From positions 1 through 49,404 of the forward strand of contig SIRU01000060.1 in assembly GCA_004366385.1 (NCBI GenBank): DNA of 49,404 nucleotides, read 5' to 3'. The notes beneath the pieces were generated by a model. That model saw only the letters and a program-made list of their open reading frames with translations, made no database searches and was not told the DNA's origin. Made by a program: the position numbers and the translations under genes. Of the stretch, positions 9,020 through 15,045 are shown piece after piece (position 1 is the first letter of the stretch; each line of letters begins with the position of its first letter). The stretch is from Actinomycetota bacterium (lineage in GTDB: Bacteria > Actinomycetota > Thermoleophilia > Gaiellales > Gaiellaceae).

Positions 9020-9167
9020 GCGGCGAGTATGCCCTGCTACCCTCCCCCAGCCCGGCCGCGCTAGGTGGGGAGTCAGCGGTTCCCTGAACCCGAAATCCGC
9101 TCCATGCGGGGCCGAACGCCGTCCGAGGGACGGTTCGTCGGGATTGGGTCTGCGAACGAGGTGTTGA

Positions 9168-9266
9168 CAGGTCGGGTTCCGCGCACTGGGAGCGTCCGAA
9201 CCGCGTCAGGTCCGGAAGGAAGCAGCGCTAAGGACTCCCTCCCAGGTGCCGCGGCTCCGCCCGATC
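9168..9266 (+). ncRNA. ffs: Signal recognition particle RNA, small bacterial type
   Basis: The conserved SRP domain IV is unmistakable: GTCAGGTCCGGAAGGAAGCA followed by GCGCTAAGG, flanked by GGGAGCGTCC on one side and GGACTCCC on the other. The arms extend outward through CGCACTGGG and CCCAGGTGCCG to about 9168 and 9266, giving an RNA near 97-100 bases. The RNA binds Ffh. In many bacteria ffs directly precedes dnaX; here dnaX starts about 4.1 kb downstream. Exact ends are estimated from pairing. Confidence 0.93.
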
Positions 9267-9468
9267 CGAGCCGAGAACGTGGATACCTCCGGTGAGACCG
9301 ATCTCGAAGGCGGAGCGTGCGGCCGGGCTTCTCCTTGTGCTCGCTCTTCACGCACTGAGCGCTCTTTTTCGAGCATGGCCTGTCTTCACTTTCGACGCCC
9401 GGTGTGCTTGAATCCCGCGCTCCGAATGCCGTCGGAATCCGGGGCCAGCCCGGAAACAGGGGGAACTC

Positions 9469-9618
9469 ATGGTCGCCACCGCGCGTGCGCATGCACGGTC
9501 CGCCAAGCTGTTGATTGCCGCGCTCGTCGTCGCGGTGCCGGTCCTGGCCCTCGCGAGTGCGGCGCCGCAGATCGAGAACTTCCGCAATCAGATCAACCAG
9601 GCGGGAGGGGGCGGGTGA
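9469..9618 (+). CDS. 49-residue secreted or membrane peptide, function unknown
   Basis: Short ORF with a good Shine-Dalgarno (CAGGGGGAACTC) before the ATG. The product has a classic signal sequence (basic start, AKLLIAALVVAVPVLALASA) and a mature tail of roughly 18 residues, APQIENFRNQINQAGGGG. Its stop codon overlaps the GTG of the next gene by 4 bases (GTGA), so the two are made together. I do not recognise it. It could be a secreted peptide or a leader peptide controlling the next gene. It lies in the accessory island between ffs and dnaX. Confidence 0.6.
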   Translation: MVATARAHARSAKLLIAALVVAVPVLALASAAPQIENFRNQINQAGGGG

Positions 9619-9902
9619 ACGTGAAGGTTTCAGAGCTGCGGGCCATGTCAGACTTGCTCTTCACGTATCTCGAAGACTCGGGGCGTAAGGAGTTCGATGT
9701 GCCCGAAGACTACTACTGGGAGATCTCGAAGGAAGAAGTCTACGATCCCTACAAGCAGCCGAAGGATCTGACGATGGGGCAACTGAGCGATGACTGGAGT
9801 CGGCTGGAGGCGATCTTGAAGGAAGAGAGTCCGCCGATCGGATATGCGCTTGTGTGGCTCTCGGCCATTCTCCGAAACATCGGGGAGAAGGCCGTCTACT
9901 GA
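9615..9902 (+). CDS. 95-residue conserved-looking cytoplasmic protein, function unknown
   Basis: Begins with GTG overlapping the stop of the peptide gene. The product (VNVKVSELRAMSDLLFTYLE start) is acidic and aromatic: DVPEDYYWEISKEEVYDPYK, then LSDDWSRLEAILKEE and YALVWLSAILRNIGEKAVY. No signal peptide or metal motif. It resembles an orphan family that I have seen scattered in unrelated bacteria (start of the kind KxSxL, then DYYW and QLSDDW motifs), but I know no function. Codons are visibly richer in A and T than in neighbours, suggesting transfer. An immunity- or antitoxin-like partner role for the upstream peptide is only a hypothesis. Confidence 0.7.
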   Translation: MNVKVSELRAMSDLLFTYLEDSGRKEFDVPEDYYWEISKEEVYDPYKQPKDLTMGQLSDDWSRLEAILKEESPPIGYALVWLSAILRNIGEKAVY

Positions 9903-9929
9903 TCGGTCAGGCCGCCCTGCTTCCCGCGT

Positions 9930-10277
9930 GCGGTCCTGTCGGCTCGTGGGCAGGCGATCAGTGGTGGCTTTGCGTATGCGATCCTGGCCTGCGCATCGCG
10001 GATGAGGCTGTCGAGGACGTCGAGGATGCGCTGGCGCTCGCCCTGGGGTAGCTCATCGAGCGGCGGCCTACCGCGTCTTCGAGATGAAGGCCTTGGCGTA
10101 CGCGATCCCGGCCTCAGCGTCGTGGATGAAGCCTATGCGCTCCCGTTCCTCGAGGCCCTCCCGGCGACGAGCGAGTTGACGAGCCGGATGACGGCGCGTC
10201 GGTCCTTCTCGGGCAGGGAGAGGACCTGCTGGAACTTCTTCCAGAGGCGACGGAAACCGGGGATGCTTCTATAAGCG
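9930..10277 (-). pseudogene. Relics of an HTH (XRE-type) regulator C-terminus
   Basis: No intact gene lies here, but the minus strand contains protein-like pieces in different frames. Next to the IS110 end: FRRLWKKFQQVLSLPEKDR continuing RAVIRLVNSLVAG, which matches the C-terminal end common in XRE-family regulators. Further on: a piece ending DAEAGIAYAKAF, then LDELPQGERQRILDVLDSLI followed by DAQARIAYAK. The second and third are related, so the region seems to hold tandem, decayed copies. The helix-turn-helix part is missing, probably removed when the IS110 element arrived. Confidence 0.55.
9967..10131. repeat. Imperfect direct repeat inside the regulator relics
   Basis: Positions 9967-10009 and 10088-10131 are alike over about 40 bases; a shared block reads GCGATCC-n-GGCCT, then TCG-n-GGATGA-n-GC. 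Period is about 121 bases. The repeat encodes the two DAxAxIAYAK pieces on the minus strand, so it is a decayed gene duplication and not a regulatory array. Confidence 0.6.
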
Positions 10278-11072
10278 TCAAGTCTTCCGCATCGCCTCCA
10301 GCTGCCGGAAGAGCGAGCGGGCGAGGTAGCGCTTGAGACAGCGGACGGCCTCGCGTTCGCTCTTTCCCTCGGCTACCCGGCGCGCGATGTAGCGCTTCGT
10401 CTCGGGGTCGATTCGACGCAGCCCGACGACGATCGTGTGCAAGGCCCGGTTCAGGCGCCGATCGCCGCCGCGGTCGAGCCGGTGACGGACGATCTTGCCC
10501 GAGCTCGCGGGGATGGGAGCGACTCCGCCCAGGCGGGCGAAGGCCGCCTCCGAGCGCAGCCGCCCCGGCTGCGACCAGCTGACGAGGAGCACCGCCGCCG
10601 AGATGGGGCCGACACCGCGGCGGGCGAGGAGCCGCGGGGCGAGCGAGCGCACCCGTAGCTCGAGCTCGGCCTCGAGCTCGTCGGCCTCCTCGCGCAGGGC
10701 GAGCACCCGCCGGGCGAGCGAGCGCAGGGCAAGTGCGAGTGCTGCCCGCTCACGATCGCGACCTCGGCGCAGACGGGCGCAGGCCTGCAGGCGGGCGGTC
10801 GGCGGCAGCCCTTCGAGCCGCTCCCTGAGCTCAGGCGGGGCGCTCACGATGAGCGCCCGCAGCTCGTTGCGCGCCGCCGTCTGCGCGACGACCGCGCCCT
10901 CGCGGGCGACAAGGAGCGCCCGCAACGCCTGTGTCTCAGCACCGAGCCGGGGAAGCGCTGCCCGCCCAGCGAGCACCTGCCGGGCGGCGCGCTCGGCGTC
11001 GAGGGCGTCCGACTTGAGCCGCCCGCGACGGCCCTCGCGCCGAGGCCGCTCGACCTCGAGCTGGGGTTGGGG
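10278..11072 (-). pseudogene. IS110-family transposase, N-terminally truncated
   Basis: About 260 residues of an IS110 transposase. Present: the coiled middle (LEVERPRREGRRGRLKSDAL onward) and the C-terminal transposase_20 domain with ARRGVGPISAAVLLVSW, the conserved Ser region (PIPASSGKIVRHRLDRGGDR) and NRALHTIVVGLRRI, ending SLFRQLEAMRKT. Absent: the N-terminal RuvC-like DEDD domain. The break falls just before LEVERP, where the IS3 element's left terminal repeat begins. It is similar but clearly not identical to the copy at 12359-13073 over the shared stretch. Without the DEDD domain it cannot be active. Confidence 0.85.
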
Positions 11073-11096
11073 TTGACCCGATCTCGTTGACACCTT
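11073..11096 (+). repeat. Left terminal inverted repeat of the IS3 element
   Basis: TTGACCCG followed after four bases by CGTTGACAC, matching the reverse complement of 12336-12358 with mismatches only in the four-base middle and one extra base near the inner end. It is followed at 11101-11114 by a CTTAC/GTAAG mini-hairpin before orfA. Confidence 0.85.
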
Positions 11097-11134
11097 GACG
11101 CTTACGGGCGTAAGCCCGGAAAGGAGTGTCGAAG

Positions 11135-11431
11135 GTGCCACGAACGCATCCCCCGTATCCGCCGGAGTTCAAGGAGCAGGCCGTCCGCCTGGTGGCAGTG
11201 AAGGAGGAGCCACTGGCCCAGATCGCACGCGATCTCGGCGTCTCGGCCTGGACACTGCGCGGCTGGGTCAAGCAGGCAGAGATCGACGCCGGCGAGCGCG
11301 AGGGCCTCACCAGCGAGGAGCGCGTCGAGCTACGAGAGCTGCGAAAGCGGGTGCGCGTGCTCGAGGAAGAGCGCGAGATCCTGAAGAAGGCAGCGACTTT
11401 CTTCGCGCGGGAGACCGATCGCCGGCCATGA
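11135..11431 (+). CDS. IS3-family transposase OrfA (HTH protein)
   Basis: 98 residues. DNA-binding subunit with an HTH_28/transposase_8 domain ([13 protein letters not shown], then [18 protein letters not shown]) and a leucine-zipper-like coiled coil ([20 protein letters not shown]) typical of OrfA. The GTG at 11135 is preferred because AAGGAG sits 8 bases upstream; a GTG 9 bases earlier is the alternative. Its stop overlaps the orfB ATG (ATGA). orfB lies in the -1 frame relative to orfA, so a programmed -1 frameshift fusion is also possible, but I see no obvious A6G-type slippery run. Confidence 0.88.
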
Positions 11432-12330
11432 GCTTCCGGCTGATCGAGGCGGAGAAGGCAGAGCATCGAGTCTCCCGGCTCTGCAGTGTGCTCGGCGTGA
11501 CCAGGCAGGGTTACTACGCCTGGAGGCGCCGGCCGCCTTCTGCTCGCAGGCGGCGCGACGGCGAGCTCGAGCGGCTCGTACGTGCTGCGTTCATCGACTC
11601 GCACGAGACCTATGGCGCTCCCCGTCTGCACGCCGAGCTCCGAGCTCAAGGCGTGCGTGTCTCGAAGAAGCGCATCGCGCGGCTTATGCGCGAGTGCTCG
11701 CTGCAGGGCGTGTCGCGGCGTGGAAGGCGTCGCCGCGTGCAGCCGCTGAGCGGTCCCGGTTCGCCGCCTGCGCCCGACCTCGTCCGTCGGCGCTTCATCG
11801 CGCAACGCCCGGACGAGCTCTGGCTCGCCGACATCACGCATGTGCCCACCTGGGAGGGCTGGCTCTTCCTGAGCGTGGTGATGGACGTCTGCACGCGCCG
11901 GATCGTCGGCTGGTCGATGCGCGACGACCTCAAGGCCGAGCTCGTCGTCGACGCACTCGGGATGGCCATCACCCGACGTCGCCCGAACGGCCAGGTCATC
12001 CACCACTCCGATCGCGGCTCGCAGTACGCCTCGCTCCTCTTCGGCCGCACCCTGCGCGACTCCGGCCTGCTCGCGAGCATGGGCTCGCGCGGAGACCCGT
12101 TCGACAACGCTATGTGCGAGAGCGTCGTCTCGACGCTCAAGGAGGAGCTGCTGAAGCGCCGCTCCTGGAAGACCCGTGACGAGGCTCGCCTCGCTGTCTT
12201 CACCTACATCGAGACCTTCTACAACCCGAGGAGGCGCCATTCAGCGCTCGGCTACGTGTCGCCGGACGAGTACGAGAGAATGATCAGGAAGAGCAAGAGC
12301 AACGACCCGCAAATCGCAACCACGTGTTAG
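11428..12330 (+). CDS. IS3-family transposase OrfB (DDE integrase domain)
   Basis: 300 residues. HTH_21 region near the start ([20 protein letters not shown]) and an rve integrase core with all three catalytic acids: Asp in WLADITHV, Asp in [12 protein letters not shown], and Glu in [16 protein letters not shown], ending with the family C-terminus [16 protein letters not shown]. Length is standard for IS3 group OrfB. The ATG overlaps the orfA stop, giving coupling or re-initiation. The intact triad suggests a working enzyme. Confidence 0.93.
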
Positions 12331-12335
12331 TCGAG

Positions 12336-12358
12336 AAGTGTCAACGGAAACGGGTCAA
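12336..12358 (-). repeat. Right terminal inverted repeat of the IS3 element
   Basis: Read on the minus strand it begins TTGACCCG and continues with CGTTGACAC, mirroring the left end. It lies 5 bases after the orfB stop codon. Confidence 0.85.
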
Positions 12359-13073
12359 GCCCAGGCCGACTCCGCGCCGGGCCAGTAGCTGGGGCGCGAT
12401 CGTCTGCACGCGCCGGGTGAGCTCGGCTTCGAGCTGGTCGGCCTCGACGCGCAGCAGCTCGATCCGGCGGGCGAGCGAGGCAAGCGCGAGGGAGAGCGCC
12501 GCCCGCTCGGGGTCGTGGCCGCCACGCAGACGAGCGCAGGCGGCGACAAGCGACCGCTGGGAGAGTCCTTGCATTCGCTCCCTGAGCTCGGGTGGGCAGG
12601 TGACAAGGAGCGCCCGCAGCTGGTTGAGCGCGGCGGTGCGCTCGTCGACCGCGCTCTCACGAGCAACGAGCAGGGCGCGCAGCGCCTGCGTGCGGGCGTG
12701 CAGCCGCGGAGTGGCGCCCGCGGACCCAGCAAGAAGCTGGCGGGCGGCCCGCTCGGCATCGAGCAGGTCGGACTTGAGCCGCCCCTGCCTGCCCTCGCGC
12801 CGGGGACGCTCGACCTCGAGCACGCGCTCCCCGCGCGCGTCGAGGAAACGAGCCAAGCCGGCGCCGTACGAGCCCCATCCCCTCCAGCGCCCAGGCGCGA
12901 CGACCTGGCGACTGCCGGCGAACGAGGCGTAACGCACGGCGGTAGCCGCGACGGTCGGCCGCGATCGTCACTGAACGACACGTCCGCTGCGTTCGCGTCT
13001 CGATCACGGCGAGCGCATGGCTGTCGGCATGCGTGTCGACCCCGATGACGAAGTCGACCTCGTCTGCAAGCAT
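12359..13073 (-). pseudogene. IS110-family transposase, frameshifted and C-terminally truncated
   Basis: Starts at ATG 13073 with a good ribosome site (GGAGGTGG). The N-terminal DEDD domain begins DEVDFVIGVDTHADSHALAV and runs to RRAWALEG. The reading then shifts frame: EGMG-SYGAG would be restored by removing one G from the G-run at 12873-12876 (read on the minus strand). The second frame continues SYGAGLARFLDARGERVLEV to ARRGVG, where the IS3 right end cuts it. The C-terminal catalytic Ser domain is missing. Two independent defects make it inactive. It overlaps in content with the copy at 10278-11072, so the two are separate IS110 copies and not halves of one gene. Confidence 0.85.
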
Positions 13074-13407
13074 GCAACCACCTCCAGGCTGATGGGGGTT
13101 CGGCGGTGCCGACCGCGACCAAACGAGCCGCGGCAAGACTGGGAATAGTCACGCCTGCTACGGCGGACGGGCTTCTGATCAAGCCGGCGGACTGTCCGGC
13201 CGGCACCGCCCGCTCGCCCGGACACATCCCCAGGAAAGACACTCGCTTGGAGGTCGGTCAGGTCTCGAGTCACAGACGAGCGGATCGGCGCCAGCCTCAC
13301 CAACGATCAGGACGGCGCTCCCACTCTCCCAGTCAGGTCTTGATCTGTGCGCGCGCGTCACCTCACCGCGCGAGCCTGTCCGTTGCCGCACGCTCTAAGA
13401 TCGCGGG
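13074..13407. other. Non-coding stretch between the IS110 relic and dnaX
   Basis: No convincing coding frame. The part next to the transposase start (about 13074-13260) probably is the non-coding end of the IS110 element. It holds short inverted repeats: GACT/AGTC near 13137-13150, GGCTT/AAGCC near 13168-13185, and GCCGG..GGAC with GTCC..CCGGC near 13183-13205. IS110-type elements carry a guide (bridge) RNA in such an end. The right part leads into the dnaX promoter; the true island edge is not visible. Confidence 0.4.
13396..13401 (+). promoter_or_regulatory. -10 hexamer of a leaderless dnaX promoter
   Basis: TAAGAT ends 6 bases before the dnaX GTG at 13408. With transcription starting about 6-7 bases after the hexamer, the mRNA would begin at the start codon; no Shine-Dalgarno is present. 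A -35 box is not obvious. Confidence 0.55.
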
Positions 13408-15045
13408 GTGAGCGCGCTATACCGCAAGTACCGGCCCCAGGGCTTCGACGAGGTCGTGGGGCAGGAGGCGGTCGTGCGGACGCTCTCGAACGCGATCGAG
13501 CACGACCAGGTGCGGCAGGCGTACCTCTTCGCCGGGCCGCGCGGCACGGGCAAGACGTCGATGGCACGGATCCTCGCGAAGGCGCTCAACTGCGCCGGGA
13601 CCGGCGGTCCCACGCCGAGCCCGGACACGACCTGCCACGTCTGCGTCGCGATCGCGAACGGCACCTCGCTCGACGTGGTCGAGATGGACGCGGCCTCGCA
13701 ACGCGGGATCGACGACATCCGCGAGATCCGCGAGCGGGTCGTGCTCCAGCCGGTCGAGGGGCGCTTCAAGGTCTACATCCTCGACGAGGCGCACCAGCTC
13801 ACGGACGCCGCGTGGAACGCGCTTCTGAAGCTGATCGAGGAGCCTCCGCCACACCTCCTCTTCGTGTTCTGCACGACCGACCTCGGGAAGGTGATCCCCA
13901 CCGTGCGCTCGCGCTGCCAGACGTTCGTGTTCCAGCGGCCGCGGCTCGCCGAGCTCGTTACGCTGCTGCGGCGCGTGGCCGACGGCGAGGGCATCCAGGC
14001 GCAGGACTCGGCGCTCTCGCTCATCGCGAGAAGCGCGCGCGGGTCCTTCCGCGACGCGGTCTCGACGCTCGACCAGCTCGCGGCGGCCACGAACAACTCG
14101 GTCGACGCGCAGGCCGTCCTCCAGCTCGTCGGCGCCGTGGACGAGGAGTCGTTGCTCCGGCTCTGCGACATGGTCGTCGACCGCGACACCGCGGGCGCGC
14201 TCGTCTTCATCGAGGAGCTCGCGGAGCAGGGCCAGGATCTCGGGCGGCTCGTGACCGACCTGCTCGAGCACCTCCGCCATCTCCTGCTCGTCCAGCACAT
14301 GGGCCACGTGCCCGAGTCGCTGCCCGTGACCGAGGAGACGAAGGACGCCCTTCGCCAGCAGGCGAACCAGCTGCCGGAGCCGACCGTGCTGCGGCTGATC
14401 GACCTGCTCGCGGTCGCGGTCGAGGACATGCGCCAGGGCGGCGATCCACGGCTGCCGCTCGAGCTCGCGCTCGTCAAGGTGACGCGCCCGCACGCGGACC
14501 TCTCGCGCGAGTCCCTCGCACACCGGGTCGAGCTGCTCGAGACCCGCGCGCACGCGCTCGGACCGCACGTGCCGGCGGCGAAGCCTGAGCCGGCCGGCGA
14601 CGGAGGCGCCACCCTCGTCGCGACGGCGCCCGCACCGGAATCGCCTGCCCCCGACCCGCCGCCGCCGTCGTCGCCGCTCGCGCTCGAACAGGTTTCGGAA
14701 GCGTGGCAGCGGACGATCGTAGAGGCAGTGCGCGATCGCTCCATCTCCGTCGCGAGCCTGCTCACCGAGGCGAAGCCGATCGGGCTCTCGGAGGACACGC
14801 TGACGGTGGAGTTCCCACCCGGGAACGACTTTCACCGCAAGCAGCTCGACGAGCCGAAGAACATCGGGTTGCTGCGGGACGCGCTCTACGAGGTGACGGG
14901 GCGAAAGCTCAGCGTGGTGCTCGAGGCCGGCCATGCGGCCGAGCGCGCGACGGACGAGGAGGAGGACGAGCCGCAGTCCGAGGAGGACTGGATCGAGTCG
15001 CTCAAGCAGACCTTCGACGCGAAAGAGGTGGAACCGGACGAATGA
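13408..15045 (+). CDS. dnaX: DNA polymerase III subunit gamma/tau
   Basis: Clamp-loader ATPase of the replicase. 545 residues. AAA+ N-terminus starts SALYRKYRPQGFDEVVGQEA, Walker A GPRGTGKTS (Lys49), a cysteine cluster NC...TTCHVC that keeps three of the usual four zinc ligands, Walker B VYILDEAHQL, then sensor 1 FVFCTTDLGKVIPTVRSRCQ. Domain III spans about residues 220-370. A Pro/Ala-rich linker (PAPESPAPDPPPPSSPL) leads to a tau-like C-terminal domain from about residue 430. I saw no A-rich slippery run for a programmed frameshift. GTG start fits the -10 box 6 bases upstream. First gene of dnaX-ybaB-recR. Confidence 0.95.
   Translation: MSALYRKYRPQGFDEVVGQEAVVRTLSNAIEHDQVRQAYLFAGPRGTGKTSMARILAKALNCAGTGGPTPSPDTTCHVCVAIANGTSLDVVEMDAASQRGIDDIREIRERVVLQPVEGRFKVYILDEAHQLTDAAWNALLKLIEEPPPHLLFVFCTTDLGKVIPTVRSRCQTFVFQRPRLAELVTLLRRVADGEGIQAQDSALSLIARSARGSFRDAVSTLDQLAAATNNSVDAQAVLQLVGAVDEESLLRLCDMVVDRDTAGALVFIEELAEQGQDLGRLVTDLLEHLRHLLLVQHMGHVPESLPVTEETKDALRQQANQLPEPTVLRLIDLLAVAVEDMRQGGDPRLPLELALVKVTRPHADLSRESLAHRVELLETRAHALGPHVPAAKPEPAGDGGATLVATAPAPESPAPDPPPPSSPLALEQVSEAWQRTIVEAVRDRSISVASLLTEAKPIGLSEDTLTVEFPPGNDFHRKQLDEPKNIGLLRDALYEVTGRKLSVVLEAGHAAERATDEEEDEPQSEEDWIESLKQTFDAKEVEPDE

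What the first reader, a model, noticed from the sequence alone, without database searches (positions are those of the whole stretch)
9469..9902. Tiny secreted peptide translationally coupled to a 95-residue orphan protein
The 49-residue product has a clear signal sequence and an 18-residue mature tail, and its stop overlaps the GTG of an A/T-richer gene of unknown function. A peptide and partner in a mobile island could be a signal, a toxin with immunity, or a leader that controls the second gene. No such pair is known to me.
Basis: partly seen in the sequence, partly recalled or inferred. Interest (0 to 1): 0.6.

Follow-up and report, generated by a model that had tools for sequence, protein, structure and literature searches.

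The report
Orphan toxin-immunity gene with toxin stub
The 95-residue protein is most likely an antidote left behind from a bacterial killing system, and the tiny "secreted peptide" in front of it is a secretion signal joined to the last 16 or so residues of the lost toxin; this is a familiar kind of relic rather than a new signalling pair, although this toxin and antidote family is not in the curated databases searched.

Summary
The two ORFs exist as described (49 aa at 9469-9618, 95 aa at 9615-9902, 4-nt GTGA overlap). The 95-aa protein belongs to a sparse family with no Pfam, NCBIfam, PADLOC, PHROG or PDB match. In five unrelated genomes or plasmids its homologue directly follows the C-terminal tip of a polymorphic toxin (RHS core in one, pretoxin-HINT in another; the Cronobacter plasmid copy is broken by a stop). 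The 95-aa protein is therefore best read as an immunity protein. The 49-aa peptide is not conserved, but its last 16 residues (QIENFRNQINQAGGGG) match the last residues of that toxin (2 of 2,981 random stretches score as high; best of 2,161 ORF C-termini). An Acidobacteria homologue without a toxin keeps the same stub, preceded by a stop, with no peptide. That stub contains the Shine-Dalgarno-like sequence of the immunity gene. In the window it is fused in frame to a signal sequence, as an internal deletion of a secreted toxin gene would leave it. The pair lies in a ~4-kb IS-rich insert between the SRP RNA and dnaX, absent from two congeners. Verdict: orphan immunity gene plus toxin remnant, a known kind; the toxin/immunity family appears uncatalogued. 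Interest is low to modest.

The parts
9056..9320 (+). large SRP RNA gene, left neighbour of the insertion
   Evidence: Rfam RF01854, 151.6 bits
9405..9415 (+). TGCTTGAATCC, the element that lies just upstream of the dnaX GTG in congener G007 (first 9 nt also in G006); here it lies 5' of the peptide ORF and marks the approximate left end of the insert
   Evidence: promoter role inferred, no sigma-70 consensus hit
9469..9564 (+). codons 1-32 of the 49-aa ORF: signal sequence with its own Shine-Dalgarno-like site; origin unknown, probably the 5' end of the lost secreted toxin
   Evidence: sequence; no specific homologue
9565..9618 (+). codons 33-49 plus stop: 3' stub of a polymorphic toxin gene; contains the GGGAGGGGG Shine-Dalgarno-like sequence of the next gene
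   Evidence: profile match at the expected position; parallel stub in L005
9615..9902 (+). 95-aa protein, predicted orphan immunity protein
   Evidence: homologues behind toxin tips in L002, L004, L006, L038 and L044; AF2 model mean pLDDT 78
10278..13136 (.). insertion-sequence debris: two truncated IS110-like transposase ORFs around an IS3-like element, same insert
   Evidence: ORFs, repeats and IS3-like inverted ends 11068-11093/12338-12363; IS names rest on recognition of the ORFs, not on a library search
13408..15045 (+). dnaX, right neighbour of the insertion
   Evidence: ORF; ~81% identical DNA follows the SRP RNA gene directly in congeners

Best explanation
The 95-aa gene is an orphan immunity gene of a polymorphic (RHS/HINT-type) interbacterial toxin. 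The 49-aa ORF is what remains of the toxin gene: a start with a signal sequence joined in frame to the last ~16 codons of the toxin. The immunity protein would bind and neutralise the cognate toxin tip when a rival delivers it; the cell no longer makes a toxin of this family. The stub survives because it carries the translation-initiation region of the immunity gene (Shine-Dalgarno-like sequence and stop/start overlap). Shown: the ORFs, the family link to toxin tips, the stub similarity, absence of a toxin of this family from the searched own genome, and absence of the insert from two congeners. Inferred: immunity activity, that the signal sequence came from the same toxin gene by internal deletion, and that translational coupling is why the stub is kept.
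For: In L002, L004, L006, L038/L043 and L044 the gene directly upstream of the homologue ends in one conserved ~70-aa tip (H..KL..Y..NP...DN.G.L.N.....R..II..RI..L...I..F; toxin HMM E 4e-19 to 7e-41; four of the five were used to build the HMM, L044 is independent). L004 carries an RHS-associated core (TIGR03696, E 4e-18) and L006 a pretoxin-HINT domain (PF07591, E 6e-10). The last residues of the 49-aa ORF match that tip's last residues: score 14.0, reached by 2 of 2,981 random stretches of the window, 4 of 20,000 shuffles, and highest of 2,161 real ORF C-termini; true toxin tails left out in turn score 12-22. The conserved F lies 11 residues before the stop, as in L006. L005, with no toxin upstream, keeps EIKAFEKGLEKLLGGK, 0 of 2,809 random stretches, preceded by a stop codon, so the stub is kept without any peptide being made. 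Shine-Dalgarno-like sequence falls inside or just after the toxin tail in the window, L002, L003, L004 and L006. No toxin tip elsewhere in the searched own genome, 97% complete. Orphan immunity genes left by loss or displacement of the effector are documented (PMC5361080, PMC3150448, PMC8189183).
Against: The stub match is only about 14-16 residues and the global HMM bit score of the 49-aa ORF is insignificant (1.0 bit). The alignment used contained the 49-aa peptide itself. No locus was found with this signal sequence joined to a full toxin, so the deletion is not shown directly. Immunity function is not tested. Six of the eleven homologue loci outside the window lack an upstream toxin body. 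The window comes from a draft assembly, so a misjoin cannot be excluded from sequence alone.
Confidence: 0.8

Rival explanations
1. The 49-aa ORF is a functional secreted peptide (signal or small toxin) and the 95-aa protein is its dedicated immunity or regulator.
For: Well-formed signal sequence, Shine-Dalgarno-like site and 4-nt overlap.
Against: No homologue of the peptide; the 95-aa family occurs without any peptide and, in five loci, with a much larger toxin instead; L005 keeps the same tail with no start codon.
Confidence: 0.06
2. The 95-aa gene is a real orphan immunity gene, but the 49-aa ORF is unrelated to the toxin; the tail similarity is chance.
For: Match is short; the frame-wide HMM score is insignificant.
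Against: Match lies exactly where the toxin's 3' end is found in relatives, with the same distance to the stop, and is rare in every control; L005 shows the same kind of stub.
Confidence: 0.1
3. The fusion is an assembly error in a draft genome: the complete secreted toxin gene is present in the organism but was collapsed in this contig.
For: The genome is a 63-contig draft; RHS-type genes are repetitive.
Against: No toxin tip was found elsewhere in the genome; no obvious repeat shared by signal start and toxin tail that would drive a collapse.
Confidence: 0.06

Closest known systems
Orphan immunity genes of V. cholerae T6SS arrays (PMC5361080, PMC8189183)
   Same: Immunity gene retained after loss or displacement of the cognate effector; displaced or truncated effectors with their immunity genes are reported there.
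   Different: There they form arrays within T6SS clusters in Vibrio; here a single gene in an IS-rich insert next to dnaX, with the stub joined to a signal sequence.
Orphan cdiA-CT/cdiI and rhs-CT/rhsI modules (PMC3150448; displaced rhs tips, PMC2935791)
   Same: Toxin fragment followed directly by its immunity gene; the orphan cdiI of E. coli EC93 is expressed and protective although its toxin fragment lacks initiation signals.
   Different: Those keep the whole C-terminal toxin domain; here only the last ~16 residues remain and no parent gene sits upstream.
Polymorphic toxins with RHS core or pretoxin-HINT (TIGR03696, PF07591)
   Same: Homologues of the 95-aa gene lie directly downstream of tips carried by such proteins (L004, L006).
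   Different: No RHS, HINT or toxin body was found next to the pair in the window.

Membership tests
Polymorphic-toxin immunity proteins | Gene lies directly downstream of a polymorphic-toxin tip | tested here: met
   For the family, in five loci outside the window; in the window only the toxin's 3' stub remains
Polymorphic-toxin immunity proteins | Specific neutralisation or binding of the cognate toxin | not testable with these tools
   Needs an experiment
Polymorphic-toxin immunity proteins | Match to a catalogued immunity family model | tested here: not met
   No Pfam, NCBIfam, PADLOC or PHROG match; a missing model lowers cataloguing, not function, and it is not a defining feature in itself
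Orphan immunity gene | Cognate toxin absent from the genome | tested here: met
   Toxin-tip profile finds only the stub ORF in the own genome, 97% complete (the profile included the peptide itself)
Secreted signalling peptide / small toxin | Peptide conserved with its partner gene | tested here: not met
   No peptide homologue; homologues of the partner lack it

The most novel reading that the evidence does not exclude
A toxin/immunity family missing from the curated libraries searched: a ~70-residue helical-hairpin tip (AF2 pLDDT 92) carried by RHS/HINT proteins across several phyla, with a ~95-residue immunity partner, whose orphan immunity genes repeatedly keep just the last ~16 toxin codons because these hold their ribosome-binding site.
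Probability: 0.5. Interest if true: 0.4.

Novelty: new member of a known kind. Interest (0 to 1): 0.25.

Why it matters
It turns an apparently unique peptide/orphan-protein pair into a readable relic of interbacterial warfare, links an unannotated 95-aa family to a toxin tip that no Pfam or NCBIfam model covers, and gives two independent cases (window, L005) in which the toxin's last codons outlive the toxin. It also warns that small 'secreted peptides' in front of orphan genes may be internal-deletion products of secreted toxins.

Tried and rejected
Family libraries for both ORFs (Pfam, NCBIfam, PADLOC; PHROGs for the 95-aa protein) and PDB sequence searches with the 95-aa protein and its alignment: nothing usable. 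Viral contigs and phages: no homologue of the 95-aa protein, none of the toxin tip in phages. Surveys of ~300-400 genomes in each of five phylum-level samples found at most one further member each, so the family is sparse. Foldseek and VIA-align of the immunity model: no match. Foldseek of the toxin tip: only generic helical hairpins at E 1 or worse, so no activity is assigned. Signal-part matches in relatives fall on unrelated proteins and were rejected. Possible stubs in L003 (SAVRNFKGVKK; 262 of 2,801 random stretches) and L007 are not distinguishable from chance. Ntox28, recalled from memory as a lead, gave no Pfam match. tblastx of the insert against the gaps in G003 and G005 gave only short fragments of no value.

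Full report
Observation. The two ORFs are present as stated. The 49-aa ORF (9469-9618) has a Shine-Dalgarno-like GGGGGAACTC before its ATG, a clear signal sequence and a short tail; its TGA shares 4 nt with the GTG of the 95-aa ORF (9615-9902). GC content falls from 0.73 (signal) to 0.65 (tail) to 0.56 (95-aa gene).

Setting. A large SRP RNA gene lies at 9056-9320 and dnaX starts at 13408. In congeners G007 and G006 the DNA matching the window resumes at dnaX only 24 and 39 bp after the SRP match ends; in G003 and G005 the gap holds ~1.2 kb and ~0.5 kb of other sequence. So about 4 kb here is an insertion. An 11-nt element found directly upstream of dnaX in G007 (TGCTTGAATCC; first 9 nt also in G006) lies at 9405 in the window, so the insertion probably split dnaX from its upstream region and placed the 49-aa ORF behind it (promoter role inferred; the consensus scan found no sigma-70 site). 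The rest of the insert is transposase debris.

Family of the 95-aa protein. No model in Pfam, NCBIfam, PADLOC or PHROGs and no PDB sequence match. Six homologues at 45-52% identity come from MAGs labelled Gemmatimonadetes, cyanobacterium, Aminicenantes, Acidobacteria and Planctomycetota/Phycisphaerales, with more distant ones on Streptomyces and Cronobacter plasmids, in a genome of the same phylum as L005 (G600) and in a genome of the window's own phylum (G354). The family is sparse (1-2 positives, the query genome included, in each 300-400-genome sample).

Neighbours. In L002, L004, L006 and L038/L043 the gene immediately upstream ends in one conserved ~70-aa tip; in the Cronobacter plasmid (L044) the same tip is present with an internal stop and is unannotated. 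L004 is an RHS-core protein and L006 ends with pretoxin-HINT followed by the tip. Toxin stop and immunity start are a few nt apart or overlap in each. This is the standard toxin/immunity layout, so the 95-aa family is best read as immunity proteins. AlphaFold2 gives the tip as a confident helical hairpin (pLDDT 92) without informative PDB relatives; the immunity model (pLDDT 78) has no PDB match. The toxin's activity is left open.

The peptide. The final residues of the 49-aa ORF, QIENFRNQINQAGGGG, align with the final residues of the tips (QIKNFENLKKQNK, ELKAFEDGVKKLLGGD, EIRTFQRQLDDLQR, EIKAFEKALEKLNAN). Scored against these four, the window tail gets 14.0; 4 of 20,000 shuffles and none of 2,160 other ORF C-termini reach that, and 2 of 2,981 random window stretches do. 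Genuine tips left out of the profile score 12.3-22 and the broken Cronobacter tip 8.5, so the window value is in the range of true members. The full-length HMM on its own is insignificant (1 bit), as expected for a 16-residue stub.

Independent parallel. L005, an Acidobacteria MAG whose homologue has no toxin upstream, carries EIKAFEKGLEKLLGGK just before the immunity frame, directly after a stop codon (score 29.25, 0 of 2,809). The toxin is gone except for the same last ~16 codons, and no peptide can be made from the stub. Loss with almost the same end point in two distant genomes suggests the stub is kept for the immunity gene. Shine-Dalgarno-like purine runs fall in or just after this stretch in the window (GGGAGGGGGCGG), L002, L003, L004 and L006. 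In L005 no standard start codon sits at the aligned start (GTC), so its immunity gene may itself be decaying or start further upstream.

Mechanism proposed. A secreted polymorphic toxin with its immunity gene was acquired in the insert; an in-frame internal deletion removed nearly all of the toxin and left signal sequence plus stub, through which ribosomes still run into the immunity gene. The cell keeps resistance to rivals that deliver this tip. The signal sequence as the toxin's own 5' end is inferred: no parent gene was found. Orphan immunity genes that confer protection are documented elsewhere (PMC5361080, PMC3150448, PMC8189183).

Verdict. The pair is not a new peptide system. It is a new member of a known kind (orphan immunity gene with toxin remnant), in a toxin/immunity family that the curated libraries searched here do not hold.

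Noticed in passing
window 9320-13408; L039-L042: The SRP RNA-dnaX interval is an insertion hot spot in this genus: 24-39 bp in G007/G006, ~1.2 kb and ~0.5 kb of unrelated DNA in G003/G005, ~4 kb here.
   Followed up: partly
window 10278-13136: Two truncated IS110-like transposase ORFs (copies 73-84% alike, 1757 nt apart) flank an IS3-like element with inverted ends 11068-11093/12338-12363.
   Followed up: no
window 9950-10290, minus strand: Remnant of a short coding region in two degenerate pieces (FQQVLSLPEKDRRAVIRLVNSLVAGR and LDELPQGERQRILDVLDSLIRDAQARIA), reminiscent of the C-terminus of XRE-type regulators; not tested against a library.
   Followed up: no
L044 4001-4482 (Cronobacter condimenti plasmid pCCO1): Unannotated toxin tip broken by a stop, followed by a diverged immunity homologue: another decayed pair of this family, without an E. 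coli match.
   Followed up: partly
window 13380-13408: dnaX here has TAAGAT about 10 nt before its GTG in place of the TGCTTGAAT element of congeners, possibly a replacement promoter for a leaderless transcript.
   Followed up: no
L011 and L012 4986-5288 (Streptomyces plasmids): Distant homologues of the 95-aa protein (32-33% identity) sit beside an IS701 transposase gene with no toxin tip detected.
   Followed up: partly
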